From Narthecium ossifragum (lineage: Eukaryota > Streptophyta > Magnoliopsida > Dioscoreales > Nartheciaceae), in contig OY986971.1 of NCBI GenBank assembly GCA_963920575.1, forward strand, positions 3,100,001 to 3,164,000: DNA of 64,000 nt, given 5' to 3'. Both the position numbers and the translations under genes were made by a program. Positions 5,801-49,908 of the stretch are shown one piece after another (the stretch's first letter is position 1; each line of letters opens with the position of its first letter). The notes beneath the pieces are model-generated. The model was not told where the DNA came from. It did not search any database and saw only the letters and a program-made list of their open reading frames with translations.

Positions 5801-8581
5801 CCAAACATGAGGTGGCTTCCTCTTCTATTTTAGCAAGACGTGTCTTGCAACTAAGGACTGAGTTGTCCCAAAAAAATCATGAGGTATTTCTGAATCATGG
5901 AATTAGATCTCAGCAATGCTACTAAAAAGTATGTTACCTGATTATAGAAATGCATCACAAGACATGGAAAGTAGTACCAGAATATTACAAATTCAGTGTC
6001 TGTTTACTTGTTTGTTTTTGTAGAACAATCTTGAGGAGCTGTGGGCGCTTCTAAATTTCTTACTACCTAGTATTTTTAATTCATCTGAGGATTTCTCCCA
6101 ATGGTTCAATAAACCATTTGAGGGCAGTGGAGATACTTCACCCGATCAAGTAAGAATTATTCATTATCTTTCAATGTAGGAGTTTAAGTTCTTTTGCTAT
6201 GTCCACTCACAGAAGTCTGATTTACAATGATCATTTTGTTGCTTATGTAGGCTTTGCTTTCTGAGGAGGAGAATCTTTTGATTATAAACCGCCTTCACCA
6301 AGTTCTTCGACCTTTTGTACTTAGAAGGTTGAAACACAAGGTATGCAGGGAATTCATTCAGGGTTACATATCAGATGCTTGCATCTAATGTTATTTCTGG
6401 TTGTGATTTCTCTTAGGTTGGTGAGCTAATAATGCTATAATATCTTATGTCTTTTCTGTCACCTTGTTAAGAAGGCTATCAGCCAAACATAAATGAAAAT
6501 TCCTTGTGTCCCTTCTGAATTCAATAAGTTTTGTTAGGATCTTGCTGGCCCAAATTCTTGAAATCCCTCTCACGTTCCCTGGACTTCGAGCTCGATAATG
6601 GTTTCTTAAAGCCCTAGAGTCCATGCTAGATGATTCTTATTCTTGCAAGCTTGTATTTCCGTGCCGGTCCAGCACTGTGTACCGTGCCAGGGGGTTAGCG
6701 GCTTCGAACCCCCCTCCCCCCCCAATACCGTGCCAAGAAGTAGGAGGAAGAAAAATGACAATGGCACAGGGGCGTGCCAGTCCGAAGGGCACGTACCGTG
6801 CCAGCAGGCTGCTGACACGGCGCGTGCAAGTTGCAAGTATGTGACATTTGTCAACCAGCACTTTTATCTTCTGAACGGAAAAATTCCTTTTGCCCTTAAT
6901 TCTTTTGCAACTCTTCTGGAAATTATCTGAGAAGAAACTTTTGATACCGTCCTATGCTTGATTCCAGTAATGTTTTCAATCCCAAGCTCTCCTCTTCCAC
7001 CCTTTGAGTCTGCCGGTTGCTTGGTCTTGCATGATGCAACCTTTTGTTCTTTGATGCTTATTAAGGTGTCAAGTCACTCGAACTGATTGCTGATGCACAA
7101 CATGAAGCACTTGGAAGCATAGCCGGATGAATTTTATCACCTGATCGAGGAAACTAAATGTCCACTGGTTGGGTTTCCTGGAGTGTGCTCAGGGTGAAAG
7201 ATACAAATGAGTTCTTCAGGTGGTAGTTGTGATATTTAATGGAGTCTAGATTATGGTGTGGTATATGAGGGAAAAATAAGTGGGCTTGCCCAGAATTGTC
7301 CTATTGTTTTAGACATCCAGTGCCTTCACATGGATAAGTATTAGATTTGTAATTGAGCAGTGACAGGTCTGAGATTTATGAAGAAGAATGTTATACCGCA
7401 AAAGAAGCAGCATTTCTGCGAGGTAAATAATGTGTTCTGATTAACTGATTAATCAACCAATACTATAGGGAAAACTGGCTTACGACGCCAACATTGGGCT
7501 ATTGTTTCCTTTTGTCTTGTGATAGTAAAAACTATGCGATCGCATCATAGCTGCCCCCTTGCTATAATTTTATAATGGACAAAGCCTTATTAGTGGACTT
7601 GCAAAGAAGCTAGCTTAGATAATTTGTTGCTCTTGTGCATCTTCTTTGTGTTTTATGCCTATGTTGCATATATATATTGTTGGAGATAAAAAGTTCGCCT
7701 TTTTTTTTGGTTATTACAAAGCTATAGAGACTCTTATGACCTTTGTACGGGCTTGGAGAATTCTTGATACCATAGCTAATCTTTTGAAGATTATTCCGGT
7801 TCAATTGTTCTAAGAGAAGAGTCATGGGCAAAGGGTATAACTTTCATGTTTTTATTTCTTATACAAATAGCATCCCTTTTTCTGGTAAGGCTGGAAACTA
7901 GTGCTTGAATTTGATGTGCTGTGGATTTGGGTCTTGTAGTTGGAAATCTTTCCTAGTTAACTTGTTAATTGAAGGAGTTTCTTTTTCTTTTGCCCAACAC
8001 TTCTATTTCTCATAGATATCAGTGACAATTCTCAGCTGTCGATATGCTAACTGCATATTTTTTATCTTTGCATAATCATCTATTTTGCAGGTTGAAAATG
8101 AACTCCCTGAAAAAATTGAGAGACTTGTACGGTGTGAAGCTTCTGCCTATCAAAAGCTTTTAATGAAGAGGGTGGAGGAAAATCTTGGCTCACTTGGAAA
8201 CTCAAAGGTTTTGCGGACTTCCTTTCTTTCTCTTGCTATTACTTGCTTAATTGTGCTGAATTCTGCTTAATGGTGCTGAATTTGCCTTTCTTTTAGGGTC
8301 GTTCTGTGCAAAATACTGTGATGGAGTTGCGCAATATATGCAATCACCCATATCTTAGCCAACTTCATGCTGAAGAGGCATGTCTAATTATTCTTGAGTA
8401 ATTTTCTCTATGTTATAAAGTCTGGTATCCTTCTTAAATTGTTCAACTTAATCTTATTCCTATCTTTTCATAGGTTGATAGTTTGATACCTAAACATTAT
8501 TTGCCACCTATTGTGAGGCTCTGTGGGAAATTGGAGATGTTGGATCGGTTGCTACCCAAGCTCAAGGCCACTGATCATCGG
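2841..8581 (+). CDS. SYD: SPLAYED-type SNF2 chromatin-remodelling ATPase, 14 internal exons, incomplete at both ends
   Basis: Exons by GT/GC-AG borders and continuous frame: 2841-2938, 3043-3228, 3455-3635, 3721-3915, 3977-4020, 4215-4271, 4409-4505, 4614-4786, 4860-5073, 6024-6149, 6251-6340, 8091-8207, 8297-8377, 8474-8581 (589 codons). The first ~250 residues are the basic, coiled HSA-like region ([17 protein letters not shown]). The SNF2 ATPase half follows: [11 protein letters not shown], motif I DEMGLGKT (4476-4499), motif II DEGH (4972-4983), motif [12 protein letters not shown] (5048-5073), then [14 protein letters not shown] and [11 protein letters not shown]. The sequence is that of plant SYD rather than BRM or MINU, judged from remembered family sequences. 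SWI/SNF ATPases slide or evict nucleosomes in the nucleus. The last exon stops at KLKATDHR, just before the helicase-C lobe, and no later exon is found in the window. The copy is therefore truncated or its 3' half lies in the assembly gap. No start codon or N terminus is visible. Confidence 0.9.
5074..6023 (+). other. 950-bp SYD-like intron with repeat-like sequence
   Basis: This intron is long compared with its neighbours. It contains repeated AGCAAGAC and ATCATGAGGT words around 5660-5890 that look like part of an inserted repeat. I found no terminal repeats or target duplication, so no element is called. Confidence 0.4.
6341..8090 (+). other. 1.75-kb SYD-like intron containing a GC-rich repeat island
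   Basis: The intron between exons ending 6340 and starting 8091. At about 6655-6832 there is an abrupt GC-rich patch with repeated CCGTGCC/GGCACG words, unlike the AT-rich surroundings. The same words occur in the ends of the hAT element at 8798-13450, so this may be the remnant of a non-autonomous relative. Confidence 0.5.
8378..8473 (+). other. GC-AG intron in the SYD-like gene
   Basis: The conserved junction (LHAEE to VDSLIPKHY) requires a donor GAG|GCATGT at 8378 and acceptor TAG at 8471-8473. The nearest GT donor would bring an immediate TGA. GC-AG introns are a known minor class of U2 introns. Confidence 0.8.
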
Positions 8582-35166: not shown

Positions 35167-35171
35167 CTATG
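35167..35171. repeat. 5-bp target duplication (CTATG), left
   Basis: Identical to 49904-49908 immediately after the other LTR. Confidence 0.95.
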
Positions 35172-36428
35172 TGTTAGAGAGGAAATCTAACCGTTGACCG
35201 GTCAAATAGTGAAAGTCAAAATCCTATTCCACACTTAAGTATCAAACGATTGCAGTTGAGTTCTACTCTTTCAAATTAATGAACCAGAGATGTCAAGTAA
35301 TATGGAAATCTAGATTAGACCTAATTAAATAATCTAATTATCAAGATTAACCTAAGAAAAGCTTTGAATTACGGAATTAAATAAAGCATAAGGATCAACT
35401 TAAATTACTGAATCTAAGAAATGCATTTAAATCTATGGATTAACTTAATCTAAGAAAGCAGTAACTTATTCTAATGAAAAACAGTAAAGAAAGCTGTAAG
35501 AAAAGCAATATAAAGGACTAATTAAACCTAAATTAATCTTAAAATACTCCTATGATCATGAATAACGAAAACAGTAATTAAAAGACTAATTTAATCTTAC
35601 TTAAAACTAATTTAACTTAATTAAACTATGGGAAAGAAACGGACAGAAAACAGAAACGGAAACAAATCCATTAATCTAAAACTACAAAAAAGAAAGAAAA
35701 GAGGAAAAGACGATTAAAACGACTACATTATCGAAATTATACTAAGAAAGCAATAAAAGACGCCATTAATCAAACTGAAAGCTTTATTAATCAACTTACA
35801 GGTACAAAAGAAACGAAAGCCATGCTTATGAGCAGGTTACAAGTTGTCTGGGGGAGGTTACAGTGGAGAAGAGAAGCTATTTATACTAAGGAACTGAATA
35901 ACTGCTCCCGCCTTGAGGGTTGATGGCGTGGAAGGAGGAGATCGTGCGCGAACTGCTCCGTAACAGCTTCTCCCACGTCTGTGTCTGGTTTGGAGAGTAC
36001 ACGTGGTTGATTCTCGTTCATTGCATACGTCATGATTACGCTGGCTTACTTATCGTTTCTTGTCCACGTCATACCTGCATGTGTTTTTTAACCATATTTG
36101 GCACACGTGTTAATTGCTTTTGGACGATAAAATTGAGTAACATGTCCAATTGTGACTTTTGGGCGATGATCGTCCATAGTCCTTTAAATGACGGTGCCAT
36201 ATGGACGATATCGTCCATTTGATTAAAATTCTATCGTCCATTTTGGTCGATAAATTCCATCGTTTCATTTGGTCGATATTTTATCGTCCATTTGGTCGAT
36301 AGACTCTATCGTTCATTTGGTCGATAGGTTTCATCTGGTCGATAAGATTATGTAGTTATCGTCCATTTAGTAATTGCCTTTTGCTTACGTGTCCGTCATT
36401 TATGAGTTAGCCATTATTTTGGCTAACA
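35172..36428 (-). repeat. 3' LTR (left)
   Basis: It starts TGTTAGAGAGG and ends GGCTAACA on the plus strand, aligned end to end with 48665-49903. It holds 13 copies of TGGNCGAT or its complement between 36121 and 36365. An 18-bp unit near 36325-36343, absent from the other LTR, adds one of them. Confidence 0.97.
36121..36365. repeat. TGGNCGAT motif cluster in the 3' LTR
   Basis: Thirteen exact matches start at 36121, 36160, 36169, 36202, 36210, 36233, 36244, 36270, 36283, 36293, 36318, 36336 and 36358, in both orientations. The N position takes A, G or T here and also C inside the element. Confidence 0.9.
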
Positions 36429-36440
36429 TTTTGCCCCCCA
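36429..36440 (-). other. polypurine tract
   Basis: Read on the minus strand, TGGGGGGCAAAA lies immediately before the 3' LTR, the position where plus-strand DNA synthesis is primed. Confidence 0.75.
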
Positions 36441-36781
36441 TGCGGTAATCGAGGAGACACTTTAATGACGAGGTGACCGCATCATCCAGGATTTGACCGT
36501 TTTGCCTAGGTTTTCAAATTTAATCATGGCGGATGTTTAGGAAAATGAACCGCTGCGCCGTTTCTTTTCTCTATCCAAATCTTTTGGGATCCAGCATTTA
36601 AACCTTCTGGCAAGTAACGACAAAAAACCCTTTATTTAAATCTCTTCCTTCAGCTAGAAAAGAACTTTCTTCGCCTGTCTTCTTCTTCAAGTCTCCTAGG
36701 GTTTTATTGCTCTTCACCTACCTGCGCGGCGGTTCTTTGTTCTTTTCCTCTTAACTCCGGCGTCTACACTCGTTCGTCATC

Positions 36782-39700
36782 ATGGTGCGTGAGATCAAAG
36801 TTGACAACGCTGTGCAGAAGGAGGTGATGTCCGCTGTGGGAGGTTTCAATGAGAACATGAAGTCAGATGACATCAGGAGTGGTTATTTGGTCCGGGAAGG
36901 TGATCCTAACTCTCAGTTATGTATTTTGAGTCCTTGCTTCGTTCCTGAGAGTATTCCTTCCCTTGGTGCCGAGGAAGCTTTTCTTGTACATTCTTTTCCT
37001 ACTTCTGTCGATTTGCCCTTTTCTGGAACCCTAAATCTCTCTTCCCTTTCTTCAAAAAACCCCATCATCTCATAGCCATTGGTTGATGACACGTTTGTCA
37101 AATGGTATAATAGGATGATTAGCCATTCTGAAACTAGGTCAATTTTTTCTGAGGCGGGTATCTTAGATTTCTTGGACTTAAGCACCAGGGTTCCTCTTCA
37201 AGATTCTAATTTGCTTATTTCATTGCTTCTCTTTTGGTCGACAGAATATAACAATTTTGTCTTCCCTTTTGGTTCGCTCACTATTACTGTATTGGACATC
37301 TCTTAACTGGCTTAACTCCACTTGGTACTTCTGTATCGGCCAATATGGACGTACCCAAGAAAGAAATCGTTTTTGAGGCCGATAAGAACTATAGCCTTTT
37401 CATTAATTACTATGCCAAGTTATCTGAGAGTGATGGTCCTCCAAACTCTCTTGAACGATTAGCGTTCATTTACTATTGGCTTTGTAAATTTGTCCTTTGC
37501 CTTCCTGCCAAAAAATCTGTCAAGGGGTACATTCCACTCGCTCGGGATCTTTCCTCAGGCAAATAAGTTTTTTCTCTTGCTCCTTTTATTTTGTCGGCCA
37601 TTTATCGAGGCATGTATCTCGTCCTTGAGCAGTTGAGAGAAGGGGGTAGCTTGACGGGATTTGGTCCTTTGTGGCTCGTCTAACTATGGCTTAGAGCTTA
37701 CTTTCCTGATCTTCATATGCCGCCTTCATCGTCATCGGCCAGAACTCAAGGCCATTTGTATCTTTCTTCATCTTCTATTCCCAAATCCTTTAGACATGCC
37801 TTCAATTATTTCTATACTCTGTCCAATTTTTCTTCTTATCGCCCATTCAATCCTGAGTCTCACCCATCGTCCATTAAGCCTTTGCTTGATCTTTCTTCAG
37901 ACTTAGAGTCTGATGATAAAATATTGGCTTGGGCCCGTTTTCTTATCGGCCGTGACCTTCATTTTGATACGGCTTGGGGCAAAGCGAATAATAAATGTGG
38001 AGTAGAAGTTTATGCTCCCAATTTTGCTGCTCGCCAATTTGGTCTTAAACAATCTTGCCCTGTGCCACCATACTTCAGTTTCAATATCGTCGCTAGAGGA
38101 CGATGTGTCTTCTCAGAGCTGGAGCGGGTAATTTATGTGGATAAGAGAGAATTGCTCCTCATTAAGAGGTTTAGGCTTAGATCTTTTGAGCCTACTAGCG
38201 AGATTGAAGCTAGTATCACTGATAGTTGGAAAGAAATGGTCGATGAACGTCTTTTCTTTGCTGACAAGGACTTAGTTTTTGAAAAGTTCATTCCTCCAAG
38301 GGAGAAGAAAAGACAAAAGCAAGTGGCTGCTAGTCATCGACCAGGCAAACGAAAGACAAAAGGTATATCTTCATCATTCTCCTTGATTTTTTGATATCCT
38401 TTCTTCATTTAATACTATATGATCGATAGGTTCAGACGATGAGGGCGATGCGCCGCCTAAAAAGAAGCGCGGTAAAGGAAAAACCGTCGTCCAACCTCAA
38501 CCATCTTCTTCTCCAAAAAATAAATCATCTCCTCGATCGATAGATTTTGACGATGATGATGATGAACCGCTTACAAAGAGACGTAGTAAAGGAAAAACTA
38601 TCGTCCAACCTCAACCATCTTCCTCTCAAAAAGATCAATCATCTTCTCGGCCAATTGTAGAGGACAAGGTTGATTCTCCTGGCAGCAGTCATCGAAGCAG
38701 TCAATCTGCTCATGATAAGTAAGTATCATAACGTTTTCCTTTCTTATTACACTTGTATTCTTCGTTTGATACTTAGACTTTTATATCTTCAGGACTGCTG
38801 TAGAAGTGGGTTCCAGTACTCCGAGCTCCTTGTATTCTTTGTCTCCTTCTCGACCTACAACCAAAGTTCCTGAGGTTGTGGTTGATACGTCTCCATCACA
38901 AATGGTCGAGGAACATCCTCCAACTTCTCCTGATCATGCTGATGAGAGTGTGCCTCCAACTTCCTCGGCCAAATCTTCCTCAAAAACCAAGGCGCAAGTA
39001 CGTTCTGGTGGTAGATTCAAACGACTCGCCCAAAAGAATATAAAAGTATAGATAACTTTTATTTTATTGATGATCGATTTATCGACCATTCTCTAATGTT
39101 TAAATCTTTTAGGAATCGAGGAAGCAAAAGTCTGTCGGCCAAAATTCTGGTCGAGAAGATGAGGATGAAGACGATAACAATATCTTTGACGTCTTGAATA
39201 CAACTCCATCTAAACCAGGTTTGTCATTAACTGGTAGAAAACTCGTTCATGGTTCGTATAGTTTTTTACGAGACCTTGGTAATGCGAGTTTATCTTCTGT
39301 ATCAGTTTCTCCTAATATCCCAGCTGCTCCAACTCAAGTTGAAGATCTCTCGGCCAAAACTACTAAGCCGGGCATCTCTGCTTCTCCAGTTGTCTCATCA
39401 ACAGAGACACTACCTGCATCCCCAAAACCTCGTCGCGGTGTCCCTGAACCAGTAATGGCCGATATTATATCGCCCACTTCTCATGTTCCAACATCAACTA
39501 TTGATGTTCACACAAGGGCGACTGTTAGAAGCCCTACAGCTGCTCCCTCTACGATGAAGGCTTCAACTTCATCTTTTGTTGCCCCCACTGCTCAACCATC
39601 CAGCTCTACCTCTTCACAGGTATTCATCGCTCAATTTGATTCTGTCGATCATTTAGTGTTAAATATTACTGAATACTTTTTCTTTTCAGGGCGATCTCGC

Positions 39701-40406
39701 CCATTTAATGAATATTGTCCAGACCTTCTCGGATTCCTGGCATTCTATAGTGACTGCCAAGAAAACGGTTGTTGACCCTGAAGTTACACAAGGAAGTCAA
39801 CATGAAGAGTTCAGGCGAGCCCTATCTCAATGTCTTGTAGTTTTGGACAAACTACCTGAAGAAGATCTCACCAGATCAGATAGCGAAGCACTGGACCAAG
39901 CTATAACACCCTTTCTCTCTGTGGATCCAACAGTCTTAGGGTTTTCGTCTAGTGATATGGACGATATCCACAACATCAAAATCAAGATTGAAAGTCTGAC
40001 TGCTGAGAGAAACAACTTGATGAATGAGATAGTTCTTATAGGGGAACGTCAAGAGCGGCGTACCCATATCAAAGACGTCATCAGCAATCGTGTCAAACAA
40101 CTTCAGAAAAATACTGATGATATTGGCAAAACAGAATCAGAGATCCTTGGTTACCAGAACCAAATGAAAGAGTTAGAGGAAAAAATCGCCCAGTGTACTA
40201 CTAAGAAGAACTATCTCCTTCGCGAAACTACTCAACTTGCTGAGGAGGGCAACCAAATGATGCAAGAGTACCTCGCTTTGGAGGCAAATTCCTCAAAAGA
40301 TCGCCAAGTCGAGTTGAAGGGTGAGCTTGTGAAGAACAAGCAACGCTTTAGGGCAGTCCGTGAAAAGATTGTTCTTTTATCTCAAAATCTCTCTTTGAAG
40401 AGATAA
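36782..40406 (+). pseudogene. antisense accessory gene of the retrotransposon: plant mobile domain plus coiled coil, five exons
   Basis: It lies between integrase and the 3' LTR, on the strand opposite to gag-pol. Exons by perfect GT-AG borders and frame: 36782-38362, 38430-38718, 38793-39045, 39113-39619, 39690-40406. Exon 1 resembles the plant mobile (aminotransferase-like) domain: FVKWYNRMI, SIFSEAGILDFL, FWSTEYNNFVFPFGSLTI, then IYRGMYLVLEQLREGGSL and WLRAYFPDLH. Exons 2-4 are S/T/P-rich with basic patches (KKKRGKGK, KRRSKGK) that could be nuclear signals, partly as a tandem duplication. Exon 5 is a long coiled coil. Exon 1 is broken by stops at 37073-37075, 37564-37566 and 37681-37683 and by a frame shift near 37303; exons 2-5 are open. 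Role unknown. A TTATTTAAATC sequence near 36630 may be its own promoter. Confidence 0.75.
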
Positions 40407-40568
40407 ATTTTTCTTTGTCTGATATGAGCGACAAGATCTTGTAATGCCACACTTTTGGCCGATATTTTGTAATGAACATATTTGTTAATTGCTCTCGTCC
40501 AAATCTCAAGGACGTACTTTGTTAATTGCTATCGTCCATATTTTGAGGACGTTTTTCTTCTATGTCTT

Positions 40569-42794
40569 TTATTCCATTGATGGGTAATACTTCTTAATGT
40601 ACCGACCATTTATCATTGATCGATGCAACCCACCGTCAATATTCCGCAGTTGATATGATCCATTTGGAAATACTTGATCGAGTAAGTATGGTCCTTCCCA
40701 GTTAGGCGACCATTTTCCATATTTGGGATCATTACGATCTATAGGTAGGATCGTTTTCCAAACTAGATCTCCTTCTTGGAACTCTTTTGATACTACTCTT
40801 TTATTGTAGATATCGGCCACTTTTAACTTTTGCGCCTCTATATTTTCTAAGGCAATAGCTCGTTGCTCATCCAGTTCTAAAAGATTATACATTAATGCAT
40901 CTTCATACTCTTCACTAGTTGAGCGATCTTGTTCCATAACTCTGGGCGATAGAACATTTATCTCAGCAGGTAGTACCGCCTCTTGACCATAAACTAATTG
41001 ATAAGGCGTAACCTTAGTATTAGACTTAGGTGTAGTTCTATGTGCCCATAACGCTCTTAATAAACCTTCATGCCATTGCCTTGGGTTATCGTCCATCATC
41101 TTTCTTATGATTGGCTTGATGGTTTTATTGGACGCTTCAGCTTGTCCATTAGACTGGGCATAGTAGGGTGTAGAATTGGCCATATTAATTTTATACTCCG
41201 CCAAAAAATTCTTTACCCTAGAACTTATAAAAATTGTCCCTTGATCAGACACAATTGTTTGTGGAATGCCAAATCTACATATGATGTTTTCCCAAATGAA
41301 ATTTATCACTTGATCATCAGAAACATTTTTTAATGGAATTGCTTCCATCCATTTAGTAAAGTAATCTGTTGCCACAATTACAAACTTGTGTAACATGGAC
41401 GATGGAGGATAAATTTTTCCTATAATGTCTATCGCCCAACATCTGAATGGCCAAGGTTTAACAATGATCGATAATTCACTTGCTGGAGCTCGTTGTAATG
41501 GACCATGTCTTTGGCATGCCTCACATCCTTTGGCATACATAGCACACTCCTCCCCCATGCGCGGCCAATAAAAGCCACTGCGCATTATTAGCCAGCGCAT
41601 TTTGATGCCAGACTGATGTGCTCCACAAACGCCATTATGTATTTCGGCCATCGTCAATTTAGCCTCATCAGGGTGCAAACAGCGCAATAAGACGCTATCT
41701 GGTCGACGTTTATATAAAACGTCATTTTGTAGGAAATAATGTATCGCTTTAAGACGGATTTTTCTATCGACCTTAAGCGATGGGTCCTTCAAAAAATCGA
41801 CGATTGGGGTCCGCCAATCCCGCTGGCTATTGATTTGACTTACCTCATTTGGCCGATGAAATCGCTCTAGTGCAGATTGAATTATGCCAGAACAGAAATC
41901 GCTCATGCCCCCCAAGTGTTTTAACACTTTGTAGCCTGATGATATTTGGGCGAGGGTATTAGCTTCATCGTTCTGTAATCTTGGAACGAATAATAGTTCA
42001 AAATCGTTAAAACGATTTAACAACATTAGAGCGATTTGATGAAATGGAATTAAAATATCGCTTTGGCATTTATAATATCCAAGTATATGATTTATCACTA
42101 GTTGTGAATCACCTTTGATTTGTACATTGGACACTCCTAAGTCTAACAAAATTTCTAGGCCGATGATTAAAGCTTCATATTCAGCCTGATTGTTAGTACA
42201 TAATTGCGATAGAGTATACACAAATTTATATTTGCGTCCAATGGGCGATAGGATCGTGATCCCTAGACCAGCTCCATTGATAGTTTTAGAACCATAAAAG
42301 TACATCGTCCATGGGGTGAGCGATACGTTGTTAATTTCTCGCTCTAACTCCTTTGGTATATCTACGCAAGGATAGTCAGCTAAAAAATCGGCCAATGCCT
42401 GGCCCGTAACAGCCTTTTGAGACACAAATTGAATATCAAATTCAGCCAATGTTAAAACCCAATAACAAATTCGTTGGTGCAAAATTGGCCGAGAAAACAA
42501 GAATTTCAATACATTGAACTTAGATATCAAGTAGACTGTTACAGGTTTTAAATAAGCGCGAAGCTTGGTACACATAAAATACAAGGCCAGGCACAACTTT
42601 TCTATGGCCGAGTATTTTTGTTCATAAGATAACAATTGTCTACTTAGATAGTACACTGCTCTCTTAGCTCCATCTTTTCTTTCTTGCGCCAAGAGACCGC
42701 CTATTGATCGGTCTGCTGCAGCGATGTAAAGCTTCATGGGTTGTCCCAACCTTGGCGGCGCCATAATTGGTGGCGTTGATAAACAGTGCTTCAA
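40569..42794 (-). CDS. retrotransposon RNase H, second RNase H and integrase
   Basis: 741 codons continuing the RT frame after a stop at 42855-42857. It begins with the end of the Ty3-type RNase H (AVYYLSRQLLSYEQKYSAIE), then an archaeal-type RNase H (NNQAEYEALIIGLEI, IKGDSQLVINHI), then integrase with the HHCC finger (HNGVCGAHQSG, CEACQRHG) and the DDE core (CWAIDIIGKI, TIVSDQGTIF, NGQAEASNKTI), ending in a GPYLLDQVFPNGSYQL-type C-terminal domain. In the second RNase H, the conserved Asp of the first strand (normally FDGS) is Tyr (YFYGSK, codon 42294-42296). Integrase inserts the DNA copy; RNase H removes the RNA template. Confidence 0.93.
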   Translation of the reverse strand: MKHCLSTPPIMAPPRLGQPMKLYIAAADRSIGGLLAQERKDGAKRAVYYLSRQLLSYEQKYSAIEKLCLALYFMCTKLRAYLKPVTVYLISKFNVLKFLFSRPILHQRICYWVLTLAEFDIQFVSQKAVTGQALADFLADYPCVDIPKELEREINNVSLTPWTMYFYGSKTINGAGLGITILSPIGRKYKFVYTLSQLCTNNQAEYEALIIGLEILLDLGVSNVQIKGDSQLVINHILGYYKCQSDILIPFHQIALMLLNRFNDFELLFVPRLQNDEANTLAQISSGYKVLKHLGGMSDFCSGIIQSALERFHRPNEVSQINSQRDWRTPIVDFLKDPSLKVDRKIRLKAIHYFLQNDVLYKRRPDSVLLRCLHPDEAKLTMAEIHNGVCGAHQSGIKMRWLIMRSGFYWPRMGEECAMYAKGCEACQRHGPLQRAPASELSIIVKPWPFRCWAIDIIGKIYPPSSMLHKFVIVATDYFTKWMEAIPLKNVSDDQVINFIWENIICRFGIPQTIVSDQGTIFISSRVKNFLAEYKINMANSTPYYAQSNGQAEASNKTIKPIIRKMMDDNPRQWHEGLLRALWAHRTTPKSNTKVTPYQLVYGQEAVLPAEINVLSPRVMEQDRSTSEEYEDALMYNLLELDEQRAIALENIEAQKLKVADIYNKRVVSKEFQEGDLVWKTILPIDRNDPKYGKWSPNWEGPYLLDQVFPNGSYQLRNIDGGLHRSMINGRYIKKYYPSME

Positions 42795-42854
42795 GCGCTC
42801 AAAGGCTTGTTGATGTCGCTCTTCCCAGACGAAGTCGTCTTCATTATTTAATCT

Positions 42855-44027
42855 TTAGAGCGATGAAAACTCTTGAGTTTTACCTGCATAGTTAGCAATA
42901 AACCTTCTTAAAAAATTCACTTGACCAAGAAACTTTTGCAGTTCTTTCTTAGTCTTTGGAGGACTAGCCTCTATTATAGACTTTGCTTTGTTTTGATCAA
43001 GTTCTATTACTCGCTGATGGACGAGAAATCCAAGGAAATTCCCTACTTGCACACCAAAGGCACATTTCAAGGGATTCAACTTTAAATTATATTCCCTCAT
43101 TCGCTCAAAGGTTTTGATTAACTGCGAAAAATGATCGGTCATAATTGGTGATTTTACTACAATGTCATCTACATAGACTTCAATAAAATGGCCAATCATA
43201 TCATGAAAAATCAAGTTCATCGCTCGCTGATAAGTAGCACCAGCGTTTTTTAGACCAAAAGGCATAACAACCCACTCATAACTTCCAAGTGATCCTGGAC
43301 ATCTAAATGCCGTTTTATGAACATCATTATCGGCAATATAAATTTGGTTATAACCAGCATACCCATCCATAAATGAGTATATTTCGTGCCCAGCAGTGGA
43401 ATCAACCAAATTATCGACCGACGGCATAGGGTACTCATCTTTGGGTGTAGCCAAGTTTAAATTTCTAAAATCTATACAAACTCTAAGTTTTCCATTTTTC
43501 TTCTTAACTGGCACTATATTAGAAAGCCACTCTACATACCTGGCCGTTCTAATAAAGTTTGCGTTTAACAATCGTTCAATTTCTTTCTTTACTTCTGGGA
43601 TTATGTTTGGAGCAAAGCGTCTAGGCGCCTGCTTATATGGTTTGAAATTTGGTCGAGTAGGAAGCTCATGTTCTACAATATTCCTATCTAAACCAGGCAT
43701 TTCTTTATAATCCCATGCAAAGCAATCTTTATATGAACGTAAAATGGCAATGAGTTCATACCTCACATCTTGGGCGATAAGCTTACTGATGAATGTTGGA
43801 CGATGCTCCTCGCTATCACCAAGGTTGATTTCTTCCAAGGGGTCTTGAGCTTGCATATTTCCACGTTTGCCGTAGGGGACTTCTTCCTCATCTTCTTGTG
43901 GGATCTCTTTTAAACAATCTAGGTCACTTTCTTCTTGTGCAGCGAACGCTTCCACTTGATAAGCCATTAGCTTGGCTTTTAAGGCCGTTACAGCGGCCTG
44001 ATTTCGTTCAGAGTCTGAACTCATCAT
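42855..44027 (-). CDS. retrotransposon reverse transcriptase
   Basis: 390 codons with the complete RT palm: FNPYKQAPRRFAP-like entry region, PVKKKNGKLRVCIDFRNLN, MPFGLKNAGATYQRAMN, and the catalytic YVDDIVVKS. The frame overlaps the end of the protease ORF by ATGA (44024-44027) and so lies in a different phase. It ends in TAA at 42855-42857, after which the same frame continues into RNase H. The enzyme copies the element RNA in the particle. Confidence 0.93.
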   Translation of the reverse strand: MMSSDSERNQAAVTALKAKLMAYQVEAFAAQEESDLDCLKEIPQEDEEEVPYGKRGNMQAQDPLEEINLGDSEEHRPTFISKLIAQDVRYELIAILRSYKDCFAWDYKEMPGLDRNIVEHELPTRPNFKPYKQAPRRFAPNIIPEVKKEIERLLNANFIRTARYVEWLSNIVPVKKKNGKLRVCIDFRNLNLATPKDEYPMPSVDNLVDSTAGHEIYSFMDGYAGYNQIYIADNDVHKTAFRCPGSLGSYEWVVMPFGLKNAGATYQRAMNLIFHDMIGHFIEVYVDDIVVKSPIMTDHFSQLIKTFERMREYNLKLNPLKCAFGVQVGNFLGFLVHQRVIELDQNKAKSIIEASPPKTKKELQKFLGQVNFLRRFIANYAGKTQEFSSL

Positions 44028-45025
44028 TTATGACTAGTGGCCGGTGATCGGCCAGTTTTGGATGCAAAGACCACTGAGGTTGGTCTTGCCGGATCAAACA
44101 GCTCTGCTACACGCTCTTTTAGCATAACTCCATTCTCAGAGACTACCTTGAGTGTGTCTTCAAACTGAAGGAATTGCAAGGGGCCATAATTGCAATCATA
44201 GAAGGATGCCTCCAATGCATGCGTGTCCATGCTGAACGGCATATTATCGGCCATAACCGATTCCACGTTTCCCTTGTCATTCCATAGGAAAAGACATTGA
44301 TGAAGAGAAGAGGGAACGCATTGACTAGCATGGATCCAATCTCGTCCAAGTAGAACGTTATAACTGGTCGATGAGTCCATGACAAAGAACGATGTCGTTC
44401 TTGTTACACTTCCAACCTTAATATCCAAAGGAAGGATCCCCTTTGCTGGGGCTGGAACTCCACTGAATCCGGTTAGAGTGATATCCGTGGGGATAAGATC
44501 ACTATCGGTTTTGTGCAGCTTCTTCATCATTTTTGTAGGGATGACGTTCACTGCGGCCCCTGTATCAATTAGGACTCTGCTTACTGGGACACCATTGATC
44601 TCGGCCTTGATATGAAGAGGCTGTAAATGTCGCGTCATTGCTGCCGGAGGTCGTTCGAACACTGCATTGTTCAAATCTTGATGGGCTTTCTTGTGTGAGC
44701 TGGCCGATGACTGAGGTTGATTGCTGACTGCTTTCCCCTTGGCCCTAGCTGCTACCTGGACGACCTCTGGGTTCTCTTGACCATCCCATGATGGCCACTG
44801 TTGATCCTTTTGGTGTTGTTCCTGCTGTGCTTCTGTTTCGTCCATGTCCCAACCAGTTGGTATGATTGGTGCTTCATTTGTTGGCGTACTGTATTTGGCA
44901 ACATCTGACTTGGGAACCCACTTCTTAACAATGGGATCGCCATAGCAAACCAAGTAATCAAATTTTCCACTTGGTTGGCCCTGAGTACTGATAGCTGGAT
45001 TACCTGCCTTGTAGAGATCCATCAA
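44024..45025 (-). CDS. retrotransposon aspartic protease region
   Basis: 334 codons. The retroviral-type protease site VLIDTGAAVNVIP is clear at about 44545-44590, with the downstream LLGRDWIHASQ block. Upstream is a spacer that repeats a module (GNPAISTQGQPSGKFDYLVC) also found about 294 bp earlier in the adjoining frame. The protease cleaves Gag-Pol. The frame is the same as the preceding ORF, separated only by TAG at 45035-45037. Confidence 0.88.
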   Translation of the reverse strand: MMDLYKAGNPAISTQGQPSGKFDYLVCYGDPIVKKWVPKSDVAKYSTPTNEAPIIPTGWDMDETEAQQEQHQKDQQWPSWDGQENPEVVQVAARAKGKAVSNQPQSSASSHKKAHQDLNNAVFERPPAAMTRHLQPLHIKAEINGVPVSRVLIDTGAAVNVIPTKMMKKLHKTDSDLIPTDITLTGFSGVPAPAKGILPLDIKVGSVTRTTSFFVMDSSTSYNVLLGRDWIHASQCVPSSLHQCLFLWNDKGNVESVMADNMPFSMDTHALEASFYDCNYGPLQFLQFEDTLKVVSENGVMLKERVAELFDPARPTSVVFASKTGRSPATSHK

Positions 45026-45034
45026 TAGCTTTTT

Positions 45035-46354
45035 CTAGGAGATGTTTCTTCTCGCTGCTTCCTCATTAACTTTAATGGGTACTTCTATTTCCACCCATTC
45101 AACATCTTCGACCATGGGCTCTTGTTCTTCATCTCCCCAACCAGTCGGGACAATTGTTGTTGATGTTGATGGTATGATTTGGGCGACAACTTCCGTCTTT
45201 TTTACAAGACGCTTCACCTTGACGTCTCCATAAACCCGGAGATAATCATATCGGCCACTTGGCTGGCCACCTGGTCCAACTGCTGGATTTCCTTCTTCAT
45301 ACAACTGTCTTAACAGTTGTTCTATAGATATATTCCTCCTCCAAGCTTCTTCACCGACGTCGATTTTTTCTTCTATCTCGACGTACTCATCCTCTTGGTC
45401 GAGCACTAAGTTTACTGAAGGTGAATTCTCCATTTCATCGACCAAGGTGGCCGATGTGTCCCCGTTTTCCTCGACCAGTGTGGCTGACGATCCACCGTCG
45501 GCCATATCTGATATATCAGAGTCGCTTTCAGTTGGACATTGTTGTCCAAGGCGACTTGGTAGAATGTAGTTGTTGACGATGACTGACGGGAGTGTTCCAA
45601 ATTTTATTACTTGTGTTGCTCTAGCCTCATCGTCATCATCCTTGTTTGGACGATGGAACTTGCTTTTTGAAGACTCTGTTGCATTGGAAACAACAACATC
45701 TTCTTCAATATACTCAACCTCCTCATCCTGACTTGGGTTGGTTTCATGGGCTTGCTTGGCCTTCATCATCTGGCCATACTTCTTCTGGTAGCGACAGTAC
45801 TGAGTCCTTGTCATCTCCTCCACATGAACTGAGCGACGAGTATAGCAGTTGTAGTTGTACCATCGCTCTGGCTTGTAAGGCTGAGGCATAAAGCTTTTTG
45901 GATACACATGAGGCTTAACCATGTTCCACTGCCTAGACTGTGAATGAGGAAACTTGGTCCCTGAGAACGGTGTCATCGGGCGACTGAGATCCCAATGACA
46001 TCTGGGGCAGACATGTGGAATGGCATGTTCCTTCCCTTTGTCTTGACCAAGTCTGGTGAAAACATCTGGACGACTGTCGTCCTCAGTCTCGTCGATGACG
46101 ATCTTGAACTTTGGCAATTTGAAGTTCGCCACGTCAGTCAGCACCATCCCCACTGGAGCAGCCTTGGGGAAAGGATTTGCATCAACTCCCATGTGTTTGG
46201 CTGGGAAACCAATCCTACCGGTATCAATCGCATCATGCAAAACATTACGGAAAACCAAACATTGGTTAGTATGATGCGACCAAACATTATGCCACTTACA
46301 ATATCTTTTGCCCTTGATCTCATCAAGGCTTGGCATAGCATGTCCATCTTTCAA
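45035..46354 (-). CDS. Gag C-terminal / linker region with zinc-knuckle-like motif
   Basis: 439 codons in the same frame as gag, after the TAA at 46379-46381. It starts near RYCKWHNVWSHHTNQCLVF, a C/H cluster common in Tat-type Gag after the capsid. The rest is acidic and low-complexity. It ends at TAG 45035-45037, after which the frame continues into protease. An element-internal duplication is evident from EEAWRRNIS and EEAARRNIS blocks 294 bp apart. Confidence 0.8.
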   Translation of the reverse strand: MKDGHAMPSLDEIKGKRYCKWHNVWSHHTNQCLVFRNVLHDAIDTGRIGFPAKHMGVDANPFPKAAPVGMVLTDVANFKLPKFKIVIDETEDDSRPDVFTRLGQDKGKEHAIPHVCPRCHWDLSRPMTPFSGTKFPHSQSRQWNMVKPHVYPKSFMPQPYKPERWYNYNCYTRRSVHVEEMTRTQYCRYQKKYGQMMKAKQAHETNPSQDEEVEYIEEDVVVSNATESSKSKFHRPNKDDDDEARATQVIKFGTLPSVIVNNYILPSRLGQQCPTESDSDISDMADGGSSATLVEENGDTSATLVDEMENSPSVNLVLDQEDEYVEIEEKIDVGEEAWRRNISIEQLLRQLYEEGNPAVGPGGQPSGRYDYLRVYGDVKVKRLVKKTEVVAQIIPSTSTTIVPTGWGDEEQEPMVEDVEWVEIEVPIKVNEEAARRNIS

Positions 46355-46378
46355 TTTAACTTGTTTATCTTTGAGTAA

Positions 46379-48610
46379 TTAATCAAAGATTTGATCAGCC
46401 TTTGAAACATCAAAAGAAAACTTTCGCATTGGACATTTACCGTCTCTAATTACTTCTTTACCCTTAAGTTCTCGCTCAAGTTTGGCAAGAGCTTTACATA
46501 TATAAAGTTTTCTTTTAAAAAGCTCGGCCAAACAAACATCGTTCATGTTGTAGTTTTCTTCATCTACTTCACTAACTTGGTTTATTTCATAGTTAGTATC
46601 CCTATAATAAGTTCCCTTGGAAGATGATTTCATTTGATCTTCTTCCCTCAACAATTGCTCATAGCGTATAGCGCTAGTCTGTAGTTGAAATAGATCAATA
46701 AAATCCCTATCTTGGAACTTTTTCTTAAGTTCAAAGGCTAATCCACTTTGAGCGATTTTTACAAATTCTCTTTCAGGCAAGGGAATAAAGCACCTACTTC
46801 TCGCTCTTTTAAATCTTTGTAAAAATGATTCAGCATTCTCATCTGGTCGTTGTCTAAGTTGAGCTAAATCGGCCATTGTGATTTCTGGTTCTGATTTATA
46901 AAATTGAGAATGGAACGCATGTTCCATTTGCTGCCAATTTTGAATAGAGTTGGGCGATAGTTTAATGAACCATGAATAAGCTACTCCGGATAAAGAGTTA
47001 GGGAATAGTCTAAGTTTGACAAAATTGCTCACGTCTCCACATTGCATGGAGAACTTCCCTATATGTTCAATGGTCGATATCTCATCTACCCCAGAGAACA
47101 TAGTAAACTCTGGAACTCTATAGTTCCTAGGAAACGGATGCATTTGGTCAACCCAATCGGGATAAGGTTTCCTATAAGTTGGACGAGTAGCTGGTCGTCC
47201 CAAACCTATTTGCTCTTGTAGAATCTCGGCAACTTGTTCACGTAGAGCATCGGCCTGATTATAAAGAGGGTTGTTGTACACTTGGTCATACTGCTTGTTT
47301 TGTGGTCGAGCATAATAGATAGGTGCCTCATATGGTCGATAATTATTCTGATAGGGGATATCACCCAAGCGTTGTCCGTCGGCCATTCTTTGATTATAAA
47401 AATTATTGCCTATTGGCCGATTAACTTGACCACCCAGTTGCCCATAGTTATTCTGTGGAAACGCCTGGCCTTGAGCATCCAAATTATTATTTTGGCCGAT
47501 ATTTTGGCCATTATTTTGGAAAACATTTTGACCATTGTTTAGGTTAACAGGGTTTTGGACATTGTTTGGGTAAACAAGGTTTTGGCCATTGTTCGGGTAA
47601 ACAATGTTTTGGCCATTGTTCGGGTAAACAATGTTTTGACCATTATTTGGGTAAACGAAGTCCTGGCCATTATTTGGGTAAACAAAGTTCTGGCCATTAT
47701 TTGGGTAAACAAAGTTCTGGCCATTAGGAGGAACGTTCTGGGGAATGTTTTGAAGAATATTCTCGCCCATAACCAAAGGCATTCCACCTACCGGTATACC
47801 TTGACCTAAAGGAATTCCATTATTAGGCGCTCCCTGCACAGGAGGCACAACACCACCTTGAACTCCTTGAAGAGGAGGGACACTATTGTTTAGTATTGCT
47901 CCAGGAGTTAACACCTCATTATTATGAGGTATTTGTGTTGGCGATGGAAACAACCCAGATGTTTGACCGATTAAATTTGGTCTTGGATTATTATCATTAT
48001 TCATCGATGGCCGATGATGGGTTGTACTAGTTTGGCCAACTTGGCTATTTTGGCCGATACGGTTTTGGCTATGCATTGGATTTTGTAAAAGAACAAAACC
48101 GTTATTACCACCAGGTCCCATGACCGTATTGGGCTGAAGTGGACGATTGTGTTGGGTGGGGTTTTGGCCGATAGGGATTGCTGACATGGTAGGCCTAGCA
48201 ACATTTGATCCAGGGTTTGCCTGAGACAAAGTTGCGTTTATAAAAGTCTGCATAGTGTCAATAAAAGGCCTTAGAGCAGTGGCGATATGACTTGCCATCT
48301 GCTGATTGTTAGCATGTAAAGCTTCATCGACCATATTTTGGGCTGTATTTGATGTTATGTTTCCTGGGTCTAGGCCAACTCTGGCCGATGAGTTCCCTCG
48401 CTCTACAGAGAGATAAACCACCCTATCTCGATATTCTATGTGTGGTGGGGAATAGGTGGAGGAATATGTGATTGGTCGAGAGGTGGAAAAGAACAGGTTC
48501 TTCCTCGACCGTAATTGGACTTTGTTGGCCATCGCCCTGATTGGCGACGTTTCCACTACCACTATTGGTGTCAAACCCAGTCCTAGTGATGACCATTCCG
48601 TCTGGTCCAA
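46379..48610 (-). CDS. retrotransposon Gag (capsid)
   Basis: 743 codons. The N half is N/G/Q/P-rich. The C half holds the retrotransposon gag fold (SGVAYSWFIKL, WQQMEHAFHSQFYKSEPEIT, RQRPDENAESFLQRFK). A 9-residue repeat (NNGQNFVYP) runs seven or more times. The N terminus is uncertain: an ATG at 48626 directly after the primer site opens a Gag-like start (MEVGQVGPDGMVITR) in another frame that fades near 48500, where this frame becomes convincing, so a one-base shift has probably occurred. Gag forms the particle in which reverse transcription occurs. Confidence 0.88.
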   Translation of the reverse strand: MDQTEWSSLGLGLTPIVVVETSPIRAMANKVQLRSRKNLFFSTSRPITYSSTYSPPHIEYRDRVVYLSVERGNSSARVGLDPGNITSNTAQNMVDEALHANNQQMASHIATALRPFIDTMQTFINATLSQANPGSNVARPTMSAIPIGQNPTQHNRPLQPNTVMGPGGNNGFVLLQNPMHSQNRIGQNSQVGQTSTTHHRPSMNNDNNPRPNLIGQTSGLFPSPTQIPHNNEVLTPGAILNNSVPPLQGVQGGVVPPVQGAPNNGIPLGQGIPVGGMPLVMGENILQNIPQNVPPNGQNFVYPNNGQNFVYPNNGQDFVYPNNGQNIVYPNNGQNIVYPNNGQNLVYPNNVQNPVNLNNGQNVFQNNGQNIGQNNNLDAQGQAFPQNNYGQLGGQVNRPIGNNFYNQRMADGQRLGDIPYQNNYRPYEAPIYYARPQNKQYDQVYNNPLYNQADALREQVAEILQEQIGLGRPATRPTYRKPYPDWVDQMHPFPRNYRVPEFTMFSGVDEISTIEHIGKFSMQCGDVSNFVKLRLFPNSLSGVAYSWFIKLSPNSIQNWQQMEHAFHSQFYKSEPEITMADLAQLRQRPDENAESFLQRFKRARSRCFIPLPEREFVKIAQSGLAFELKKKFQDRDFIDLFQLQTSAIRYEQLLREEDQMKSSSKGTYYRDTNYEINQVSEVDEENYNMNDVCLAELFKRKLYICKALAKLERELKGKEVIRDGKCPMRKFSFDVSKADQIFD
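47500..47730 (-). repeat. 27-bp tandem repeat inside gag
   Basis: A unit of 27 bp (plus-strand core TTTGGCCATTGTTCGGGTAA) is repeated about seven to eight times. It encodes the NNGQNFVYP nonapeptide. Its length keeps the frame. Confidence 0.9.
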
Positions 48611-48640
48611 CTTGACCGACTTCCATAAAGTCTTGACACA

Positions 48641-48659
48641 GGTCCCACCGGGTGTGCCA
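48641..48659 (-). other. primer-binding site
   Basis: Read on the minus strand, TGGCACACCCGGTGGGACC lies 5 nt inside the 5' LTR. It starts with TGG, complementary to the CCA end of a tRNA. I did not identify which tRNA. Confidence 0.75.
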
Positions 48660-48664
48660 AAAAA

Positions 48665-49903
48665 TGTTAGAGAGGAAATCTAACCGTTGACCGGTCAAAT
48701 AGCGAAAGTCAAAATCCTATTCCACACTTAAGTATCAAACGATTGCAGTTGAGTTCTACTCTTTCAAATTAATGAACCAGAGATGTCAAGTAATATGGAA
48801 ATCTAGATTAGACCTAATTAAATAATCTAATTATCAAGATTAACCTAAGAAAAGCTTTGAATTACGGAATTAAATAAAGCATAAGGATCAACTTAAATTA
48901 CTGAATCTAAGAAATGCATTTAAATCTATGGATTAACTTAATCTAAGAAAGCAGTAACTTATTCTAATGGAAAACAGTAAAGAAAGCTGTAAGAAAAGCA
49001 ATATAAAGGACTAATTAAACCTAAATTAATCTTAAAATACTCCTATGATCATGAATAACGAAAACAGTAATTAAAAGACTAATTTAATCTTACTTAAAAC
49101 TAATTTAACTTAATTAAACTATGGGAAAGAAACGGACAGAAAACAGAAACGGAAACAAATCCATTAATCTAAAACTACAAAACAGAAAGAAAAGAGGAAA
49201 AGACGATTAAAACGACTACATTATCGAAATTATACTAAGAAAGCAATGAAAGACGCCATTAATCAAACTGAAAGCTTTATTAATCAACTTACATGTACAA
49301 AAGAAACGAAAGCCATGCTTATGAGCAGGTTACAAGTTGTCTGGGGGAGGTTACAGTGGAGAAGAGAAGCTATTTATACTAAGGAACTGAATAACTGCTC
49401 CCGCCTTGAGGGTTGATGGCATGGAAGGAGGAGATCGTGCGCGAACTGCTCCGTAACAGCTTCTCCCACGTCTTTGTCTGGTTTGGAGAGTACACGTGGT
49501 TGATTCTCGTTCATTGCATACGTCATGATTACGCTGGCTTACTTATCGTTTCTTGTCCACGTCATACCTGCATGTGTTTTTTAACCATATTTGGCACACG
49601 TGTTAATTGCTTTTGGACGATAAAATTGAGTAACATGTCCAATTGTGACTTTTGGGAGATGATCGTCCATAGTCCTTTAAATGACGGTGCCATATGGACG
49701 ATATCGTTCATTTGGTTAAAATTCTATCGTCCATTTTGGTCGATAGATTCCATCGTTTCATTTGGTCGATATTTTATCGTCCATTTGGTCGATAGACTCT
49801 ATCGTTCATTTGGTCGATAAGATTATGTAGTTATCGTCCATTTAGTAATTGCCTTTTGCTTACGTGTCCGTCATTTATGAGTTAGCCATTATTTTGGCTA
49901 ACA
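48665..49903 (-). repeat. 5' LTR (right)
   Basis: The partner of 35172-36428. In element orientation it begins TGTTAGCC at 49903 and ends CTAACA at 48665. U3 holds ten exact TGGNCGAT/ATCGNCCA matches (49614, 49662, 49695, 49726, 49737, 49763, 49776, 49786, 49811, 49833). The TATA box lies on its downstream side at 49371-49378. Confidence 0.97.
49371..49378 (-). promoter_or_regulatory. TATA box of the retrotransposon LTR promoter
   Basis: The minus strand reads GTATAAATAGC, a strong TATA box in the direction of gag-pol. The same sequence is in the 3' LTR at 35877-35887. The TGGNCGAT cluster lies about 240-470 bp upstream, in the position of an enhancer. Confidence 0.7.
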
Positions 49904-49908
49904 CTATG
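49904..49908. repeat. 5-bp target duplication (CTATG), right
   Basis: Identical to 35167-35171. Confidence 0.95.

What the first reader, a model, noticed from the sequence alone, without database searches (positions are those of the whole stretch)
35172..49903. A retrotransposon saturated with one short word, TGGNCGAT
Reading both strands, I count 64 exact TGGNCGAT/ATCGNCCA matches: 13 in the left LTR, 10 in the right, 41 internal (for example 37335, 38237, 39081, 39456, 39469, 40456, 41396, 41850, 42242, 43771, 44365, 44701, 45448, 47071, 48008, 48165, 48382). A word with seven fixed bases is expected about twice in 14.7 kb, and I noticed only one in the remaining 49 kb (27805). All four bases occur at N. 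Matches lie in both orientations, in different codon phases, in gag, pol, the antisense gene and the LTRs. Neither protein coding nor simple duplication explains this, although gag IGQ codons (ATC GGC CAA) account for a few. Near misses (CTCGGCCA, GTCGGCCA, TGGTCGAG) suggest a slightly looser core, TGGNCGA. This looks like a selected binding site of a protein that acts on the whole element.
Basis: seen in the sequence. Interest (0 to 1): 0.92.

Follow-up and report, generated by a model that had tools for sequence, protein, structure and literature searches.

The report
Retrotransposon saturated with one word
A plant retrotransposon carries one short DNA word about a hundred times, on both strands and inside its genes, and relatives in the same genome carry it too, so the word is likely the landing site of a protein, probably made by the element's own antisense gene, that would help the element escape silencing.

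Summary
The 14.7-kb element (Tat-type Ty3/gypsy, minus strand, TSD CTATG, LTRs 0.9% apart) holds 68 TGGNCGAT (dinucleotide shuffles: 1.4) and 102 TGGNCGA (4.5 expected). Codon-preserving shuffles of gag-pol give 9.6 TGGNCGA against 53 seen. The spacer is exactly one base, N is free, internal strands are equal (40/39). Words lie in coding, intervening and U3 DNA; flanks are near background (16 seen, 10.7 expected). In the held genome (379 Mb) one relative with synonymous divergence near 1 keeps 67% of the words against 24% for same-letter controls; a more decayed relative keeps 31% against 16% (p 0.09). Apparently non-autonomous LTR elements carry up to 26 per kb with the same spacer. The antisense gene beside the 3' LTR encodes a plant mobile domain (PMD) protein (sister copy, E 1.9e-30) under purifying selection. 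PMD ORFs at three other loci weakly match DUF1985, a VANC domain. Best reading: a selected double-stranded binding site, likely bound by the element's PMD protein, predicted to act like VANC. Binding and any effect on silencing are untested. Unlike VANC sites, most internal words are in coding DNA, in both orientations, outside tandem repeats.

The parts
35172..49903 (-). Whole Tat-type Ty3/gypsy LTR retrotransposon, gag-pol on the minus strand; 102 TGGNCGA of which 68 TGGNCGAT
35167..35171 (.). Target-site duplication CTATG, left copy
   Evidence: sequence
49904..49908 (.). Target-site duplication CTATG, right copy
   Evidence: sequence
35172..36428 (-). 3' LTR (left); 13 words
48665..49903 (-). 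5' LTR (right); 10 words; 11 substitutions in 1239 columns against the left LTR (K2P 0.009)
36121..36365 (.). Word cluster in U3 of the 3' LTR, upstream of the antisense gene; partly a 23-49 bp tandem array
49614..49840 (.). Word cluster in U3 of the 5' LTR, upstream of a TATAAATA at 49378-49371
36755..40406 (+). Antisense gene: PMD (plant mobile domain) protein with a lysine-rich stretch and further 3' exons (exon structure inferred); frame interrupted in this copy; 23 TGGNCGA in 36434-40406
   Evidence: uninterrupted PMD ORF in sister copy L035
40569..42854 (-). pol: RNase H, second (RVT_3-type) RNase H, integrase; 14 words
42855..44027 (-). pol: reverse transcriptase; frame ends in a stop before the RNase H part; 4 words
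44024..45034 (-). Aspartic protease region; 7 words
45035..46378 (-). ORF between gag and protease; 10 words; no Pfam match
46379..48679 (-). gag (Retrotrans_gag); 18 words

Best explanation
TGGNCGA(T) is a double-stranded DNA word spread over the whole retrotransposon and its relatives and kept there by selection, likely the binding site of the PMD protein encoded by the element's antisense gene, which would coat the element and counter its silencing much as VANC proteins do for VANDAL transposons. Shown: enrichment, fixed spacer, strand symmetry, independence from codon content, excess retention in a relative whose synonymous divergence is near 1, sharing with apparently non-autonomous elements, and a PMD antisense gene under purifying selection. 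Inferred: that a protein binds the word, that it is the PMD protein rather than a host factor, and that the outcome is loss of silencing. The dense U3 clusters sit beside both the gag-pol promoter region and the start of the antisense gene, so the protein could also drive its own expression.
For: Enrichment. Specificity (spacer 1 only, N free, TGANCGA tolerated, T preferred at position 8), spacer and free N repeated in four element sets. Codon-preserving shuffle. Retention against relative L021/L022: 37 of 55 and 37 of 54, same-letter controls 23 of 94 and 23 of 93 (Fisher p 3.6e-7 and 2.8e-7), fixed positions more identical than N and flanks; dS between the two elements 0.6-2.0 by piece. Against a second relative L023/L024, its words are in excess retained (12 of 21 vs 11 of 86, p 5.6e-5). 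Genome-wide paired words 450 against 14 for the reversed pattern, many of them copies of one LTR array but in several other contexts too. Apparently non-autonomous LTR elements up to 26 words per kb. Antisense PMD: E 1.9e-30; dN/dS 0.11-0.24 and faster than RT (dN 0.22-0.30 vs 0.07). PMD ORFs of 3 of 5 PMD loci also match DUF1985 weakly (E 5e-5 to 2e-3); DUF1985 is a VANC domain (PMC5735166, Fig 5 legend).
Against: The DUF1985 matches are all below the curated cut-off, and L035's own PMD ORF matched PMD only. Window words kept in the second relative, 12 of 39, do not clearly exceed controls, 11 of 70 (p 0.087). Fourfold-degenerate third positions are more conserved inside window words (30/35 vs 325/478, p 0.035) but not significantly with the relative's words (26/32 vs 329/481, p 0.17). 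Loci not chosen for a PMD also reach high scores for other words (L014 49.5, L021 35.5, L015 24.0), so words do not single out PMD elements. At 2 of 4 sister copies the antisense region was not found where expected. No Tat element of another clade was recognised, so word and antisense gene could not be shown to vary together (one search listed mainly copies of this family, 38 of 13336 candidates scored). No binding, expression or methylation data. The host PMD proteins MAIN and MAIL1 promote silencing rather than oppose it (PMC7156037, passages).
Confidence: 0.55

Rival explanations
1. A host transcription or chromatin factor recognises TGGNCGAT, and the elements have accumulated its sites to be expressed or kept open.
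For: Dense U3 clusters near promoters; shared by several element kinds in one genome.
Against: The word is only slightly above expectation in 49 kb of flanks (16 vs 10.7), and ordinary activators do not explain saturation of gag-pol coding DNA. Host promoters were not surveyed.
Confidence: 0.25
2. The word serves the retrotransposition machinery, for example integrase, capsid or double-stranded cDNA handling.
For: Spread over the whole transcribed element and present in apparently non-autonomous partners.
Against: Equal on both strands (40/39), so RNA recognition is unlikely; U3 and the inner part of the non-autonomous elements are denser than gag-pol.
Confidence: 0.1
3. A methylation side effect: CpG contexts that decay slowly or are protected leave this word behind.
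For: Words contain CpG, and CpGs in words are kept more often than elsewhere (43/57 and 46/54 vs 111/221 and 108/250); the decay product TGGNCAA is also in excess (22 vs 8.1).
Against: Slow decay alone cannot make 102 words where base composition without any CpG loss predicts 4.4; other NNNNCGA words are kept at 25-35% only.
Confidence: 0.05
4. Chance, amino-acid content or tandem duplication.
For: gag-pol protein sequence raises the expectation to 9.6 words; U3 words are partly in tandem arrays.
Against: 53 seen vs max 19 of 1000 codon shuffles; 6 of 79 internal words lie in tandem arrays; 79 distinct flanks.
Confidence: 0.01

Closest known systems
VANDAL21/VANC21 sequence-specific anti-silencing (Arabidopsis; PMC5735166, parts 1-2 of 6 read)
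   Same: Short word at high density over one TE family and rare elsewhere; element-encoded extra gene that evolves faster than the core enzyme; words clustered in regulatory DNA
   Different: Here an LTR retrotransposon, not a MULE; words mostly in coding DNA, both orientations, mostly not in tandem repeats; protein is PMD, not a DUF1985 match; binding and hypomethylation unproven
Retand elements with antisense TRP28 ORF (PMC11963269, parts 1-3 of 5 read)
   Same: Element with long POL-3'LTR region and an antisense gene suspected to bind DNA
   Different: Antisense domain here is PMD; TRP28 (PF04195) not found by the Pfam scans; no saturating word is mentioned in the parts read
Ogre elements with PMD ORFs (57% of Ogre elements, PMC6317226, one passage)
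   Same: PMD in a plant non-chromovirus gypsy retrotransposon
   Different: Sub-lineage not tested by phylogeny; no target word mentioned in the passage seen
MAIN/MAIL1 host PMD proteins and the DOWN motif (PMC7156037, PMC9899485, passages)
   Same: PMD proteins linked to transcription through a short promoter motif
   Different: Different motif (CATGCAGTTT in the MORC1 promoter), host genes, role in keeping TEs silent

Membership tests
VANDAL/VANC anti-silencing system | Short word dense in the TE family and rare in the rest of the genome | tested here: met
   element; window flanks; paired word genome-wide 450 vs 14 reversed; single words were not counted genome-wide
VANDAL/VANC anti-silencing system | Words mainly in non-coding regions, arrayed in the same orientation | tested here: not met
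   53 of 79 internal words in gag-pol ORFs; 40 plus, 39 minus
VANDAL/VANC anti-silencing system | Words accumulate as tandem repeats | tested here: not met
   6 of 79 internal words in tandem arrays; seen only in U3
VANDAL/VANC anti-silencing system | Element encodes a DUF1985 VANC protein | tested here: inconclusive
   Antisense gene is PMD without a DUF1985 match; PMD ORFs at 3 of 5 other loci match DUF1985 below cut-off
VANDAL/VANC anti-silencing system | Protein binds the word and removes DNA methylation | not testable with these tools
   needs protein and plants
VANDAL/VANC anti-silencing system | Mutator-like DNA transposon | tested here: not met
   gag, protease, RT, RNase H, integrase and LTRs
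Tat clade of Ty3/gypsy | RT, RNase H, second RNase H and integrase in pol | tested here: met
   PF00078, PF17919, PF17917, PF13456, PF00665; dual RNase H as a Tat feature from PMC9289625, passage
Tat clade of Ty3/gypsy | Antisense gene between pol and 3' LTR (described for Retand, Grande, RIRE2 in PMC11963269) | tested here: met
Retand lineage | Antisense TRP28 (PF04195) domain | tested here: not met
   no PF04195; the genome-wide PF04195 search did not complete
Tat, Retand or Ogre lineage | Placement in an RT phylogeny | not tested
   no tree was built

The most novel reading that the evidence does not exclude
PMD proteins carried by plant transposons are a broad class of self-targeted anti-silencing factors, each paired with its own short word: in this one genome TGGNCGAT marks Tat retrotransposons and their non-autonomous partners, and ATCGGTA, AACCGAA and CGGTCGA mark PMD-bearing MULEs or elements beside them. 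The Tat element writes its address into its own protein-coding sequence.
Probability: 0.3. Interest if true: 0.93.

Novelty: new variant of a known kind. Interest (0 to 1): 0.84.

Why it matters
Sequence-specific anti-silencing is known for Arabidopsis VANDAL DNA transposons. A counterpart in LTR retrotransposons, with the address embedded in coding DNA, would give a function to the antisense genes of Tat elements, whose role is unknown (PMC11963269), and to transposon PMD proteins. It would also offer a natural sequence-specific chromatin opener with a defined word.

Tried and rejected
Amino-acid, dinucleotide and duplication explanations were rejected. CpG survival as sole cause was rejected. 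AlphaFold2 on the sister-copy PMD ORF gave mean pLDDT 34.5 and was dropped, no fold search made. Protein search with the 3' antisense exon found nothing, and with the PMD ORF one weak Abeliophyllum hit. The viral and bacterial genome collections gave no relative of the RT. The gag1 codon comparison aligned poorly (24% identity) and is not used; the 3' antisense exon there is 45.5% identical in protein with saturated dS. Of four sister copies fetched, L034 and L036 showed no alignable antisense region (2 and 0 words) and were left out of the antisense comparison; L035 and L037 were used. In one search word-covered RNase H-integrase residues (42) were about as conserved as the other 711 (0.688 vs 0.651) with more rare residues (19% vs 14%), so words look mostly fitted synonymously with some amino-acid cost. 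ATCGATC counts count most sites twice, since GATCGATC is read on both strands; the same holds for TCGNCGA. One search failed in mid-script and was redone.

Full report
Observation. The element at 35172-49903 lies between 5-bp duplications CTATG, has LTRs of 1257 and 1239 bp that differ at 11 of 1239 aligned columns plus an 18-bp indel in the U3 word array, and runs on the minus strand. It holds 68 TGGNCGAT and 102 TGGNCGA. Internal counts are 45 and 79 where dinucleotide models expect 1.1 and 3.9. The flanks hold 16 TGGNCGA in 49 kb against 10.7 expected.

What the word is. Changing the spacer abolishes the excess (spacer 0: 7; 1: 79; 2: 2; 3: 3; about 3.9 expected each). The N is free (18 A, 30 C, 13 G, 18 T). 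The clearest tolerated change is G to A at position 3 (TGANCGAT 14 vs 1.6), with T preferred at position 8 (45 of 79; G 21, C 10) and smaller excesses for A at position 1. Internal orientation is 40 to 39. TGGNCAA, the CpG decay product, is also in excess (22 vs 8.1). Such a pattern is that of a protein reading double-stranded DNA; RNA recognition would not be strand-symmetric. Density is 5.8 per kb in the antisense-gene region, 3.4 in RT, 6 to 8 in the rest of gag-pol and 8 to 10 in the LTRs.

Not coding. Shuffling synonymous codons within each gag-pol ORF, so that protein and codon usage stay fixed, gives 9.6 words on average, 19 at most in 1000 trials, against 53 observed, in several codon phases and both orientations. 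In the RNase H-integrase part, word residues are no less conserved across 120 listed homologues than other residues.

Selection. The genome holding the window (379.4 Mb, 150 contigs) could be searched. A relative at C2:7553000-7572999 (L021/L022) aligns at 82% (9273 columns). Counting alignment gaps as losses, 37 words are shared, 21 are only in the window element and 17 only in the relative. Without gapped sites, 37 of 55 window words and 37 of 54 relative words are kept, whereas words made of the same letters with a CG keep 23 of 94 and 23 of 93, other NNNNCGA words 35% and 25%, other TGGNNNN words 38% and 36% (Fisher p 3.6e-7 and 2.8e-7 for the same-letter control). For window words the fixed positions other than the CpG C are 0.93-0.98 identical, the C 0.80, the N 0.85, flanks 0.73-0.92; for the relative's words the fixed positions are 0.87-0.96 and the N 0.85. 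Synonymous divergence between the two elements is 0.6-2.0 by piece, 0.9 in RT. At fourfold sites of conserved residues identity is 30 of 35 inside window words and 325 of 478 outside (p 0.035); with the relative's words it is 26 of 32 and 329 of 481 (p 0.17). These last counts are small, and a few overlapping residues are counted twice.

A second relative (L023/L024, 78%, 6284 columns) is more decayed: 13 words shared, 30 only in the window element, 10 only in the relative. Without gapped sites 12 of 39 window words are kept against 11 of 70 controls (p 0.087), and 12 of 21 of its own words against 11 of 86 (p 5.6e-5). So retention is clear in three of four comparisons.

Other elements. RT matches of 90-97% identity are many (107 listed, 106 of 7902 candidates scored). 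Genome-wide the paired pattern TGGNCGATN10TGGNCGAT occurs 450 times against 14 for the reversed pattern; of the first 100 or so places listed, many are copies of one LTR array, the rest show several other contexts. Ten 20-kb neighbourhoods chosen from that list for differing contexts were read: 8 of 10 hold 12 to 96 TGGNCGA and 2 of 10 hold 6 and 9, with 2 to 7 of the reversed word in each. Two are LTR elements whose LTR ends only resemble the window's LTR ends; the 3 of their ORFs that I scanned matched nothing in Pfam, so I call them apparently non-autonomous. They carry up to 26 words per kb. In them and in L021/L022 the spacer and free N are the same as in the window element. A trans-acting factor is the simplest reading.

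The antisense gene. It begins about 0.3 kb from the 3' LTR, whose U3 carries a dense word cluster. In the window copy the PMD appears in three pieces because the frame is interrupted. In a sister copy (L035, 96.5% identical over this region, 31 words) one ORF of 492 aa matches PMD at E 1.9e-30, 106.7 bits, cut-off 34.9. Between the window-type and L021/L022-type genes dN/dS of the PMD pieces is 0.11-0.24, with dN three to four times that of RT: a fast-evolving but constrained protein. PMD occurs in 57% of Ogre elements (PMC6317226, passage) and in gypsy elements of ten to forty plant species (PMC9289625, passages, which call its function unknown).

The VANC link. VANC21 binds YAGTATTAY, dense in VANDAL21, and removes methylation; VANC proteins contain DUF1985 (PMC5735166, parts 1-2). 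Five PMD loci of this genome were fetched (L029-L033; four with MULE transposase ORFs, one with a C48 peptidase). All 5 PMD ORFs match PMD above cut-off, and 3 of 5 also match DUF1985 at E 5e-5, 7e-4 and 2e-3, all under the curated cut-off. So PMD and VANC may be distant relatives. These loci lack an excess of TGGNCGA (2-5 per 10 kb). Their best other words score 16.2, 11.5, 21.8, 27.3 and 34.7, against 6.5 to 15.5 for five window segments outside the element. Against a PMD-only link, stretches fetched for TGGNCGA and not for a PMD also reach 49.5 (L014), 35.5 (L021), 24.0 (L015), 19.9 (L019) and 18.9 (L026) for other words; some of these words recur at the PMD loci, so they may be partners of such elements, but that was not tested. 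L033's ATCGGTA words lie outside its transposase and PMD ORFs. Part of that array is an inverted repeat, and the CGGTCGA clusters may belong to neighbouring elements, so these counts are weaker than those for TGGNCGA. Genome-wide, paired ATCGGTA occurs 6787 times against 225 for the reversed pattern.

Mechanism. I commit to this: the PMD protein of the antisense gene binds TGGNCGA along its own element and its non-autonomous partners and counters silencing. Shown are the word, its retention, its sharing, and the gene. Binding, identity of the binder and effect are inferred.

Literature. The listings, judged by title and start of abstract and mostly capped (for example 15 of 2178 papers), showed no paper on a saturating word in a plant LTR retrotransposon or on transposon PMD proteins as anti-silencers. 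The library is partial, so this is weak evidence of absence. PMC10398659 was seen as abstract and outline only.

Noticed in passing
L033:5131-5690 and genome-wide: ATCGGTA/TACCGAT arrays, often as inverted pairs: 6787 paired matches vs 225 reversed controls; L033 is a PMD-bearing MULE with the words outside its two main ORFs.
   Followed up: partly
L031:1694-1999 and 8036-8334: AACCGAA words flank the ORFs of a PMD-bearing MULE (15 in 10 kb vs 1.2 expected, 12 of them in these two stretches).
   Followed up: partly
L032:8539-8857, L033:9482-9748, L015:4228-4675: Compact CGGTCGA clusters with partial similarity to one another, 11 to 15 in under 0.5 kb.
   Followed up: partly
L029:1126-1330, L014:6711-7475, L021:2554-3447: GATCGATC-centred clusters in stretches with no similarity to one another found by blastn at 1e-5; the L029 one precedes a TATA-like sequence.
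   Followed up: partly
L009:5978-10000 with L010:1-673; L011/L012 4549-13802 in joined coordinates: Apparently non-autonomous LTR elements with up to 26 TGGNCGA per kb, many spaced 15-18 bp in one orientation.
   Followed up: partly
window:47502-47726: 27-bp tandem repeat inside gag coding an NGQNFVYPN-like peptide repeat.
   Followed up: no
window:42855-42857: In this copy a stop separates the RT and RNase H-integrase parts of pol.
   Followed up: no
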